The position numbers and the translations under genes are program-made. Shown one piece after another: positions 2,610 through 53,863 of a stretch of DNA of 64,000 nt. The notes beneath the pieces were generated by a model. That model was not told the origin of the DNA, searched no databases, and worked only from the letters and a program-made list of their open reading frames with translations. Source of the stretch: Deltaproteobacteria bacterium RIFCSPHIGHO2_01_FULL_43_49 (lineage in GTDB: Bacteria > UBA10199 > SPLOWO2-01-44-7); NCBI GenBank assembly GCA_001798075.1, contig MGRG01000014.1, forward strand, positions 186,001 through 250,000. Direction: 5' to 3'. Position 1 is the first letter of the stretch, and the number at the start of each line of letters is the position of its first letter.

Positions 2610-3326
2610 ATGGCTTATCTCCCTCGCTACGCCATCATCTGGGATGGCGCTATCTTCCACGTCACTTGGCAATGCCATAACAAATCCTGGCTCCTCAAAT
2701 ACAGCTGGGCCAAACAACTTTATTATGACCTGTTGTTGAAATATAAGGACCAATACAAAGTCTGCTTCTTCTCCTACCATTTCATGGATAACCACATCCA
2801 CCTATCCGGCAAAATCTTGGGCACTAAAGAAGAATTCTCCTCCCTCTTCAAAATCGTCAATTCCCGCTTCGCAAAAGAAATCAATAAACAACTCAAAAGA
2901 AAAGGCCAAGTCGTCATGGATCGATTTAAATCTCCATGCATCCAATCGGACACAGCTCTATTGGCCGTTATGACTTATCAAGATTTGAACTCCTATCGAG
3001 CCAAAAAGGTGAACCACCCCAAAGAATACCGATGGTCTTCTTATCATTTCTACGCCTATGGCAAAAAAGACCCCCTCCTGACACCAGCCCCCTCTTATCT
3101 GGCCATGGGCAATACCGATCTGGAGCGACAGCAGGCTTATCGAAAGCTCGTAAAAGAAATCCTTGAAAAAGAGGGGTTTCAGAAAAAAGATTATTCGGAA
3201 AAATGCTATATCGGAGACCCCGATTGGGTCCTAAAACGATCCAGAGAGTTAAAAATAATCATGCAGGCTAAAAGACAAGCCTATCTCCTCAGACAACGGC
3301 GGCAACTTTATGCTGCCTCACCATGA
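2610..3326 (+). CDS. REP-associated tyrosine transposase (RAYT, IS200-like Y1 family)
   Basis: A 238-aa single-strand DNA transposase of the HUH/Y1 type, the class that mobilises or maintains dispersed repeats. The HUH motif is H62-I-H64 in FMDNHIHLSGK. A candidate nucleophile is Tyr123 in MTYQDLNSYR, where RAYTs usually have YIHxNP. HPKEYRWSSYHFYAYGKKDP is the typical C-terminal RAYT signature. The N-terminus (MAYLPRYAIIWDGAIFHVTW) corresponds to the usual RxRRxxxxxxxxHVTxR start. Repeat copy A lies just upstream. There are no obvious terminal repeats, so this is a domesticated-type RAYT rather than an insertion sequence. Confidence 0.9.
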   Translation: MAYLPRYAIIWDGAIFHVTWQCHNKSWLLKYSWAKQLYYDLLLKYKDQYKVCFFSYHFMDNHIHLSGKILGTKEEFSSLFKIVNSRFAKEINKQLKRKGQVVMDRFKSPCIQSDTALLAVMTYQDLNSYRAKKVNHPKEYRWSSYHFYAYGKKDPLLTPAPSYLAMGNTDLERQQAYRKLVKEILEKEGFQKKDYSEKCYIGDPDWVLKRSRELKIIMQAKRQAYLLRQRRQLYAASP

Positions 3327-42538: not shown

Positions 42539-43684
42539 TTATTCTCTGTTCAGAAGAGATTCCAAAACGCCCTCTCTGTGGACATCTAAAGTCGCACAGT
42601 GGAAAGCACCGCCTAATGAATAAAAATTCCGAAAAGGACATCGAATAGGTTGCAATCCCAAATATTTCATAGATTGGACCATTGGTTCGTCTTCTGCCTC
42701 AACAATAACCCTGTTTTGGTCGAGCATTAAAACATTCATGTTCAGCCACTTGCTTGTCATATAAAGAGGCTGCGTGTCCGGAATAATAGGCTTAGGAGCA
42801 AAAACAAAATCCCAACCTAAAAACAGACCATTTATCAGATTTTGTACTACTGTTTCGGATACCCTTTCTGGATTGACCAGAACCAGACCAGGCTTGAGAG
42901 GCATAAAAGTTGCGTCAATATGCATGGGGTGGGAATCATCAAATTGCAACACGTGAATTCGATAACGAGATCCCAAGTGGGTTTGTAGCCAATCGATACC
43001 CATTCTGTTAGTCACATGACTTTGCTGAACAACAATATCTGCACCCAAACGGATAAAATCGGCGGCATCAAAAAGAGGCTCCTCTTCCGTAATAACAGAT
43101 TCAAATTGATCTTCTTTATAGCGCCAATTTTTATTATAACTCCGATCCGTAAGTTCAGGTCTGGGAGCAACCGTATATCTGAATCCACGCTGTTGGTAGG
43201 CACCTAGCAACTCTTGGTAAGGTTCATGTTCTCTATAACGTGATCGCCATGCCATCGGGGCTGCTATAATTTCATCACCCACAACCAACAGAGCATCTCG
43301 GGGCATAGCAGCGTAGAAACCTCCCTTTGTTTTCCAGCCCTCTTTTTCAATGGGTTTATGAAATAAATCACCAGGATCCTTTGGACGCCTAACTTTTACT
43401 CCTTCTGATTCAAGGATATGAACAAACGCGTCCAAATCTTTCTTTGCTGCATCGAGAACATCTTGCGGAAATGGCGACCCGGCACGATCACGAAAGAATT
43501 GCCAATACCCTTTAGGAAGGGTTGCCTGAATCATTTGAAATGATTCGTCCGGAACGGTGGCACCCTCTACCCTTCCGACAATAGCCTCTCGGAGAGGATC
43601 CCATTCGTTATAGGAACCTAACGTACCAGCTGAAGAGGCTGAACTTAAAGATCCACCGAGAGTGAGACCTGGTGATGTATACAT
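42539..43684 (-). CDS. Arginine amidinotransferase (glycine amidinotransferase family)
   Basis: 381 aa from the ATG at 43684. The frame continues 15 codons further, but those overlap promoter site 3. Family blocks: GSYNEWDPLREAIVGRVEGA, DAADFIRLGADIVVQQSHVT, then NRMGIDWLQTHLG, HPMHIDATFMPLKPGLVLVN (catalytic His/Asp), and GGAFHCATLDVHREG (nucleophile Cys). Transfers the amidino group of arginine to an amine, as in creatine, streptidine or cyanotoxin synthesis; the acceptor here is unknown. The N-terminal extension is Ser/Gly-rich. The -10 box ends 8 bp before the ATG, so the mRNA is likely leaderless. Confidence 0.88.
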   Translation of the reverse strand: MYTSPGLTLGGSLSSASSAGTLGSYNEWDPLREAIVGRVEGATVPDESFQMIQATLPKGYWQFFRDRAGSPFPQDVLDAAKKDLDAFVHILESEGVKVRRPKDPGDLFHKPIEKEGWKTKGGFYAAMPRDALLVVGDEIIAAPMAWRSRYREHEPYQELLGAYQQRGFRYTVAPRPELTDRSYNKNWRYKEDQFESVITEEEPLFDAADFIRLGADIVVQQSHVTNRMGIDWLQTHLGSRYRIHVLQFDDSHPMHIDATFMPLKPGLVLVNPERVSETVVQNLINGLFLGWDFVFAPKPIIPDTQPLYMTSKWLNMNVLMLDQNRVIVEAEDEPMVQSMKYLGLQPIRCPFRNFYSLGGAFHCATLDVHREGVLESLLNRE

Positions 43685-43692
43685 CAATACTA

Positions 43693-43719
43693 TTATCGTC
43701 AATTCTCGGAAAAAGTTGC
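43693..43719 (-). promoter_or_regulatory. FliA-like promoter, site 3
   Basis: GCAACTTT, 11 bp, GACGATAA on the minus strand, 8 bp before the amidinotransferase ATG. Confidence 0.7.
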
Positions 43720-52603: not shown

Positions 52604-52726
52604 TGGTTTCTCCTTTGAAGTGAAGCGGGCTAACATATTTAGTCAGGCACTACAACTAAAAAATCTTCTCCGACCCTTGCGAAAAACACTTTCATGAATA
52701 GAGTGGAGCTTCGGGGCTCTTCCATT

Positions 52727-52859
52727 ATTTGAAAATGACGGGGCCTAACTGGAGTGGCGGGTCCTGCCCCTCCGTGTTGCTGCGGGGGCCCCTAACTAAA
52801 CCCCACAGCCAACACTCCGGGTCACCCACCACTCCACCCATCACCCACCATTTTCAAAT
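52727..52859. repeat. Nested palindromic repeat element, copy 1
   Basis: ATTTGAAAATG at the left end is inverted exactly at the right end, and GGAGTGG/CCACTCC lies inside. The 70-bp core 52758-52827 is 90% identical to 59789-59858. The whole can fold into one long hairpin. MITE-like. Confidence 0.7.
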
Positions 52860-52963
52860 CTTTTAAAATACCTTACCCCTTCGCTCCAATCACACCACAT
52901 TGAGGCGTTTTTCGCAGGGGCGCTCCAAACTATCGCGATAATTCGGAGTGTATAGGTGCAATA

Positions 52964-53200
52964 GCACAAGCGAGCTTCATTATGTTTGTGTAAAATTTGT
53001 CTCCGACTAGCGTGACGGCGAGGGTCTCTGAGGGCTTCTCACAGGCGATTTTTACTTTACGGGGGATCTAAAGACAAAATCGCCGAGAGAGAACGCTAAT
53101 TGGGGGTGGCAATCCCCAATTAGATAGTGTCCCTCAGAGACCTTTGCCGTCAGGTAGCTAGGAGGAAACAAACCGAAGTAAAAATAAATCTCGCTTGTGC
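52964..53200 (+). ncRNA. Candidate structured RNA, 237 nt, three-way junction
   Basis: Closing stem GCACAAGCGAG/CTCGCTTGTGC (52964-52974 with 53190-53200). A 22-bp uninterrupted stem pairs 53013-53034 with 53131-53152; its two non-Watson-Crick pairs are G-U only on the plus strand. Above it are two hairpins, GGCGATTTT/AAAATCGCC (53044-53084) and CTAATTGGGG/CCCCAATTAG (53096-53123). No ORF. Ends 63 bp before coaE. Not tmRNA, 6S, SRP or RNase P by eye. Confidence 0.55.
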
Positions 53201-53263
53201 GACGATCAGCTACATCGAAGAAGCACTCTTTACAAAAATTAGAGAGGATGGCATGAGGTTTCT

Positions 53264-53863
53264 ATGCGACAATTTGCTTTGACGGGTGGTTTTGGTACTG
53301 GAAAATCGACAGTGGGAAGAATGTTCGAGGATTTAGGAATTCCCCGGATCGACGCGGATTCTCTAACCCATGAGGTAACCGCCCCAGACAGAACTGCTTG
53401 GCGCCAAATTGTCTCTGCCTTTGGCGAAGATGTCCTCCTTGGTGATCGCAACCTCGATCGCCACAAACTGGCCGAAATTGTCTTTAACAACCCTGCTCAA
53501 AGAAAGCGCCTGGAGGCCATTATTCATCCCAAGGTAAAGGAAACGATGCATGAGCGGATTGAGGCCCTACGCCGTCAAGGACATTCAAGGGTCATTCTAG
53601 AAATTCCCCTCCTTTTTGAAGCGGGTTGGGATAGGGAAGAGCCTTTGGACGCCATCATCGTGGTTACAACCGACGAACAGACTCAAATCAAACGGGCCAA
53701 ACAGAAATTTGGACTCGATGAAAAGGCAATCAAGGCGAGAATTGCGGCCCAACAGCCTTTGGATACAAAAGCAAAGAAAGCAACTTTTGTAGTCGATAAT
53801 GGTGGAGACGTTAGTAAAACCAAAGCCCAGGTCGACGAAATTTTCAAAAAACTGCCTAGTTAA
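53264..53863 (+). CDS. coaE: Dephospho-CoA kinase
   Basis: 199 aa. P-loop GGFGTGKSTVGRMFEDLG, IDADSLTHEV, HPKVKETMHERIEA and the lid region (TTDEQTQIKRAKQKFGLDEK). Last step of coenzyme A synthesis. Overlaps the convergent pnp by 8 bp. The 237-nt RNA candidate lies just upstream on the same strand, so it could be a long 5' leader of this gene. Confidence 0.95.
   Translation: MRQFALTGGFGTGKSTVGRMFEDLGIPRIDADSLTHEVTAPDRTAWRQIVSAFGEDVLLGDRNLDRHKLAEIVFNNPAQRKRLEAIIHPKVKETMHERIEALRRQGHSRVILEIPLLFEAGWDREEPLDAIIVVTTDEQTQIKRAKQKFGLDEKAIKARIAAQQPLDTKAKKATFVVDNGGDVSKTKAQVDEIFKKLPS

What the first reader, a model, noticed from the sequence alone, without database searches (positions are those of the whole stretch)
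52964..53200. 237-nt three-way-junction RNA candidate upstream of coaE
A 22-bp perfect stem (with two plus-strand-only G-U pairs), an 11-bp closing stem and two strong apical hairpins. The strand inferred from wobble is the coaE strand, 63 bp before its ATG, so it is either an independent RNA or a long 5' leader of the CoA pathway gene.
Basis: partly seen in the sequence, partly recalled or inferred. Interest (0 to 1): 0.66.

Follow-up and report, generated by a model that had tools for sequence, protein, structure and literature searches.

The report
Dispersed Y-shaped hairpin repeat family
The hairpin before coaE is not a coaE switch but one of dozens of scattered copies of an apparently undescribed, strongly folding Y-shaped repeat that recurs in unrelated uncultured bacteria, with the same tip each time but stem arms that are often particular to the copy.

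Summary
The structure is real: 22-bp and 11-bp stems, two apical hairpins, a fold far beyond shuffles. It is not a coaE leader. The same three-way-junction core has 68 matches in this 2.2-Mb genome, beside unrelated genes, and none near coaE in 8 other genomes that have coaE. The core model R2 matches 17 of 46 genomes of the class, WOR-3/Stahlbacteria and candidate-phyla bacteria; Rfam has no match. In 39 aligned cores 34 of 35 pairs show double compensatory changes; G·T exceeds A·C on the coaE strand. Outside the core, arms are often copy-specific yet complementary (mean duplex -28.4 versus -11.9 kcal/mol for swapped flanks). In one case one arm holds the native end of recF and the other its inverted copy. 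Listed neighbouring copies are divergent in 31 of 32 cases. Best reading: a dispersed, mobile hairpin element with a conserved cap and partly target-derived arms, analogous to REP/RPE and mitochondrial hairpin elements. The mobilising enzyme is unknown.

The parts
52964..53200 (+). whole A hairpin: closing stem, long stem, three-way junction and two apical hairpins
   Evidence: 9 DNA-level copies incl. itself in the own genome
53023..53143 (+). conserved core (model R2 match, 93.4 bits, E 2.8e-22)
   Evidence: model built from 39 cores
52964..52974 (+). outer closing stem, 5' arm (pairs with 53190-53200)
53190..53200 (+). outer closing stem, 3' arm
53013..53034 (+). long stem P1, 5' arm (pairs with 53131-53152; 20 WC + 2 G.U)
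   Evidence: covariation
53131..53152 (+). long stem P1, 3' arm
53038..53089 (+). apical hairpin P2: short lower stem 53038-53040/53087-53089, 3-nt 5' bulge, variable upper stem 53044-53052/53076-53084
   Evidence: (I7)
53096..53123 (+). apical hairpin P3 (53096-53105/53114-53123)
   Evidence: compensatory changes
52674..52920 (.). adjacent B hairpin, left partner of the A hairpin in the same unit
   Evidence: multi-copy
52664..52676 (.). left end motif of the composite unit (TCTTCTCCGACC-type terminal repeat)
   Evidence: paired with a right end in 4 other units
53212..53224 (.). degenerate right end motif of the composite unit
   Evidence: found only with up to 4 mismatches allowed
53264..53863 (+). 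coaE, downstream neighbour; not part of the element

Best explanation
It is a copy of a dispersed hairpin element. The constant part is a cap of about 105-150 nt that folds as a three-way junction; the cap sits on a stem whose outer arms are often copy-specific but still complementary. In the window the hairpin is the right half of a two-hairpin unit (B hairpin at 52674-52920 plus this A hairpin) with degenerate terminal motifs. Shown: multi-copy dispersal at unrelated sites; a conserved folded core in several phyla; covariation; strand asymmetry; copy-specific complementary arms; near-uniform divergent order of neighbouring copies. Inferred: the element is (or was) mobile and largely selfish; at or after insertion, the free end of the folded cap is extended by copying the adjacent host flank (fold-back or template-switch synthesis), so one arm is host sequence and the other its inverted copy; in some lineages the arms are then inherited with the cap. 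The active single strand (RNA or ssDNA) and the mobilising enzyme are not known.
For: 68 R2 matches in the own genome, earlier 9 at DNA level. 34 of 35 pairs with changes on both sides, 90.8% of 1333 cells paired against 61.2% in shuffles and at most 55.8% with slid partners. G.T against A.C: 31:0 (A2), 89:24 (A3, well-paired columns), 29:15 (A4); among copies at least 90% alike 17:5. In G040 two cores are 98% identical over exactly 105 nt with unrelated flanks, each on its own near-perfect stem; three G066 copies likewise. 122 copies: matched flank duplex mean -28.4 versus -11.9 (sd 5.2) for flanks of different copies, 62 of 122 beyond the 1% quantile. recF of G004: the D-G-K codons, present at the same place in the G005 homologue which has no hairpin there, lie inside one arm and their exact inverted copy is the other arm. 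Neighbours under 700 nt apart: 31 of 32 divergent in G000 and G002, gaps mostly 87-107 nt in G002. In-frame insertions in the mutL linker of G003 and G005.
Against: No transposase or other enzyme was linked to it: Y1_Tnp genes are in 48 of 60 relatives but not in G002 and G040, which carry the element. No true empty site was found; relatives are too far apart. The target-derived-arm step rests on one clear case. In WOR-3, and partly in G073, G134 and G068, arms are shared between copies, so arms are not always new. In G060 0 of 4 and in G073 1 of 4 copies beat the 1% quantile in the swap test within the genome. Template switching alone can produce compensatory changes (PMC8794818, passages read), so covariation does not prove function.
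Confidence: 0.55

Rival explanations
1. The cap inserts into the tips of hairpins that already exist (terminators, REP-like palindromes, MITE stems); the copy-specific arms are simply the old stems.
For: Hairpin edges often lie within a few nt of stop codons. Caps sit inside larger palindromic units in G000, where the same place holds different modules.
Against: 26-35 bp near-perfect arms unlike ordinary terminators; no T-run recognisable beside most arms by eye; in G004 recF the arm is native coding DNA and homologues have no hairpin there.
Confidence: 0.2
2. A conventional MITE family moved by a TIR-recognising transposase, with the folded cap as a passenger or regulatory part.
For: Composite units in G000 with TCTTCTCCGACC...GGTCGGAGAAGA ends (4 units of 467-524 bp); WOR-3 copies with shared arms and terminal ATGTCACATTT-like repeats (by eye).
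Against: Most copies inspected lack those ends and share only the cap; the cap is common to unrelated units and phyla, the ends are not.
Confidence: 0.15
3. A host-beneficial dispersed structured RNA (for example a 3'-end stabiliser or terminator-like structure), kept by selection at many loci.
For: Strong covariation and G.T over A.C asymmetry on one strand; frequent place at gene ends.
Against: Copy number from 0 to about 70 among genomes of one class, 29 of 46 without a match, and 140 of 148 genomes without one in a candidate-phyla set; no consistent neighbouring gene or orientation; copies inside mutL.
Confidence: 0.08
4. A 5' leader or riboswitch of coaE.
For: Same strand, 63 nt before the ATG.
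Against: Multi-copy beside unrelated genes; no R2 match near coaE in 8 of 8 other genomes; no Rfam match.
Confidence: 0.02

Closest known systems
REP/REPIN elements of bacteria (RAYT-associated)
   Same: extragenic, palindromic, many copies, single or in inverted pairs
   Different: REPs are 14-40 nt in E. coli (PMC12306157, passages read); here the unit is 105-250 nt with a conserved three-way junction, and genomes without a Y1_Tnp match (G002, G040) carry it. The RAYT link is recalled.
Rickettsia palindromic elements (RPE)
   Same: 105-146 bp palindromes, intergenic and in frame within protein genes (PMC2229807, section 9 read); here in frame in mutL
   Different: RPEs are described as Rickettsia-specific long stem-loops; here a Y-shaped cap shared by several phyla and often copy-specific arms
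Double-hairpin / repetitive hairpin-forming elements of mitochondrial genomes
   Same: hairpins invading intergenic regions with scattered distribution (PMC2800124, abstract and outline read; further papers in the listing)
   Different: organellar; no sequence relation was tested; a shared three-way-junction core is not mentioned in what I read
Bacterial MITEs (ERIC, Correia, RUP and others)
   Same: non-autonomous, dispersed, folding (PMC2229807, abstract and outline read)
   Different: MITEs have fixed terminal repeats; here what is constant is the middle and the ends vary
Parvovirus (AAV) terminal hairpins
   Same: three-way-junction fold on a stem and hairpin-primed copying, as an analogy (hairpin priming of parvovirus is mentioned in PMC8794818; the AAV fold is recalled)
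   Different: no sequence relation claimed or tested; works-like comparison only

Membership tests
Any Rfam 15 RNA family | match at the family's gathering score | tested here: not met
   window: only two tRNAs; the element at E up to 10: three chance-level hits; 9 and 11 further loci: none
coaE leader / riboswitch | conserved position before coaE in relatives | tested here: not met
   R2 at 0 of 8 other coaE loci with about 1.5 kb flanks
REP/REPIN | short (about 14-40 nt) extragenic palindrome | tested here: not met
   core of 105-150 nt with a three-way junction
REP/REPIN | many extragenic copies, with inverted pairs | tested here: met
   68 matches; 31 of 32 close neighbours divergent
REP/REPIN | RAYT (Y1 transposase) in the genome | tested here: inconclusive
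   48 of 60 relatives have Y1_Tnp; carriers G002 and G040 have none found, but both are drafts
RPE | palindromic element inserted in frame in coding genes | tested here: met
   mutL of G003 and G005
RPE | sequence homology to Rickettsia RPE | not tested
   no RPE sequence was compared
MITE | constant terminal inverted repeats at element ends | tested here: not met
   met in the composite units (4 units) but not for the family: constant core with copy-specific outer arms
MITE | target site duplication | tested here: inconclusive
   none evident by eye in the ends printed; no systematic test
MITE | autonomous partner with the same ends | not tested
   not searched systematically

The most novel reading that the evidence does not exclude
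A new class of mobile nucleic acid: a conserved Y-shaped single-stranded (RNA or ssDNA) cap that is inserted alone and builds its own stem by copying the host flank, giving an inverted duplication of the target instead of a direct one, and that has spread between distant bacterial phyla.
Probability: 0.25. Interest if true: 0.85.

Novelty: new variant of a known kind. Interest (0 to 1): 0.66.

Why it matters
If right, a repeat family shared by candidate-phyla bacteria, WOR-3 and a Bdellovibrio/deltaproteobacteria-labelled group has gone uncatalogued (no Rfam match). Its copy-specific arms would record an insertion or growth process that duplicates the target in inverted orientation, which is testable from strain-level genomes. 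It also warns that covariation across paralogous repeats can look like a riboswitch.

Tried and rejected
coaE leader: rejected. Unique independent RNA gene: rejected by copy number. RAYT as the obligatory mobiliser: not supported. Phage origin: the core pattern gives 0 hits in viral contigs (an exact and rather strict pattern). I first expected very low G.U content to point to a DNA-level palindrome; a small control of 12 tRNAs gave G.U 17 of 258 pairs (6.6%) against 31 of 468 (A2), 128 of 2921 (A3) and 29 of 1333 (A4), so that argument was dropped. mutL could not serve as an empty site: the linker is not conserved and holds other repeats. A joined-flank query for an empty site of one unit found outer-module copies with other contents, not an empty site. 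Prevotella hit L149 is judged chance: it folds unlike the core and R1 does not match it. L190 was printed at a wrong offset (its contig start is truncated) and was left out of later counts.

Rows dropped before counts: three antisense echoes of palindromic copies (L105 +, L106 -, L070 +), so 59 of 62 rows were used in later scripts; one search lists only part of its matches, so one search used 64 of 68 (G000) and 63 of 70 (G002); one search used 122 copies with full 50-nt flanks (of 59 + 29 + 19 + 16 = 123 assembled), among them an apparently identical pair, L212 and L208. In one search, L133 and L171 hold masked Ns.

Full report
Observation. The 237-nt structure is present as described and folds far better than shuffles on both strands (z -11.1 and -13.5). 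coaE starts 63 nt downstream. Rfam has no match in the region, even at E up to 10 beyond chance-level hits.

It is a repeat. DNA search of the own genome gave 11 matches: itself, eight further long copies at 69-80% identity and two short pieces. The nine long copies align end to end with a conserved junction, and 28 of 52 predicted pairs have compensated double changes. Model R1 from these nine gave 51 matches in G000 (the number of candidates scored in that call) and matches in 10 of 60 genomes. A broader model R2 from 39 cores gives 68 matches in G000 and 70 in G067; G067 and G002 give the same contigs and places for the same matches, so I take them as one genome, deposited as JAUSII01.

Where it occurs. 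In the class 17 of 46 genomes have R2 matches, from 1 to 68 per genome. A pattern scan of named genomes gave 18 loci: Bdellovibrio- and Deltaproteobacteria-labelled MAGs, WOR-3, Stahlbacteria, and Uhr-, Colwell-, Yanofsky-, Terry- and Peregrinibacteria, plus one Prevotella hit judged chance. R2 finds 2 to 18 matches in each of the seven non-deltaproteobacterial genomes behind these loci, and matches in 8 of 148 relatives of the Peregrinibacteria genome. Five of the 39 cores used to build R2 came from four of those genomes (L134, L138, L140, L142, L150), so their own hits are by construction; the Uhrbacteria and Terrybacteria genomes and the other genomes were not in the model. G003, G005 and G040 equal JAHFSU (nzgw604), JAUYJH (C24 bin 128) and DYJF (Bdellovibrio sp. 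FI88_57_8) by 100% identity over about 1.9-3.2 kb.

Fold. On the 39 cores 34 of 35 pairs show changes on both sides; 90.8% of cells are standard pairs against 61.2% in column shuffles and at most 55.8% with slid partners; covariation score 0.71 against 0.195. The structure was derived from the same alignment, which favours it over the slid versions. Non-Watson-Crick cells are biased to G.T over A.C on the strand that in the window is the coaE strand: 31:0, 128:25 (89:24 in well-paired columns) and 29:15 in three alignments, and 17:5 and 96:24 among close copies (pairs of sequences are not independent). G000 copies lie about equally on both contig strands (33:31), so a replication-strand bias should average out. 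This favours a folded single strand, RNA or ssDNA. It does not prove an RNA function: template switching can create and maintain hairpins with compensatory changes (PMC8794818, passages read).

Arms. Two G040 cores are 98% identical over exactly 105 nt and unrelated outside it, each standing on its own long stem. Peregrinibacteria and G134 copies show the same abrupt change from shared core to copy-specific but complementary outer arms. Over 122 copies the flanks of the same copy form duplexes of -28.4 kcal/mol on average, those of different copies -11.9 (sd 5.2); 62 of 122 pass the 1% quantile of the mismatched ones. Against this: 0 of 4 copies in G060 and 1 of 4 in G073 pass within their genome, and WOR-3 copies share their arms. 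In G004 a copy abuts recF. The gene ends inside the left arm; the codons for D-G-K are native, as the G005 homologue has them at the same place, and the right arm repeats them inverted. Among the nine recF loci R2 finds a core only in G004 (next to the gene end) and G005 (on the other side of the gene). This single case favours arms copied from the target over insertion into an old hairpin.

Surroundings. Copies are mostly intergenic, with no consistent neighbour or orientation. Relative to the core, of the 73 copies with ORFs called on both sides 42 lie between co-directional, 21 between convergent and 10 between divergent ORFs; these are simple ORF calls. Many hairpin edges lie within a few nt of a stop codon (no random control was run). 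In mutL of G003 and G005 the core lies in frame in the linker, and the G002 mutL is split between two contigs there. Close neighbours are nearly always divergent, 13 of 13 in G000 and 18 of 19 in G002, with gaps near 94 nt in G002. In G000 several copies form the right hairpin of two-hairpin units with terminal motifs; the window copy is of this kind, with the B hairpin on its left. The tips of such units are exchanged between modules.

Not coaE. coaE was found in 8 other genomes; R2 finds no core within about 1.5 kb in any of them.

Mechanism. Shown: dispersal, fold, covariation, strand bias, copy-specific arms, paired geometry. Inferred: mobility, and arm synthesis by fold-back or template-switch copying. 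Unknown: enzyme, transcription. Y1 transposases do not track it (48 of 60 genomes have one; carriers G002 and G040 do not).

Comparison and novelty. It works like REP, RPE or mitochondrial hairpin elements but is not filed under any of them (membership table). Not found in print: searches (open-licence PMC papers only; listings seen) showed no title or abstract start describing it; that is a limited search.

Noticed in passing
window 52674-52920: Second large hairpin (B) beside the finding, itself multi-copy (42 rows); its inner part of about 75-80 nt alone accounts for most rows, a separate repeat or cap family.
   Followed up: partly
L155-L162: Another palindromic module (GGGCAGGAGTGGGGGTG...CACCCCCACTCCTGCCC ends) that can hold either the core or a different tip, and can sit in the place of the core in the composite units.
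   Followed up: partly
window about 2652-2900 (+): Y1_Tnp (REP-associated transposase-like) match G000:C14:188652-188900, one of six in the genome; no REP was looked for.
   Followed up: no
window 43573-43712 (+): Weak second R2 match (19.3 bits, E 0.0063), perhaps a decayed copy.
   Followed up: no
mutL linker in G001-G005 (L109-L113, L119): The linker differs strongly between genera and seems to collect repeats; in G004 it reads VIPAKAGIQ, which I recall as a peptide read from other REP-like repeats.
   Followed up: partly
G002 contig ends (e.g. C100:1-91, C107:7-101, C104:14-135, C62:9-126): Cores lie at several contig ends of the draft, so copy numbers in drafts are probably underestimates.
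   Followed up: no
G073:C1: The six best matches in this candidate-phyla genome all lie on the + strand of one long contig.
   Followed up: no
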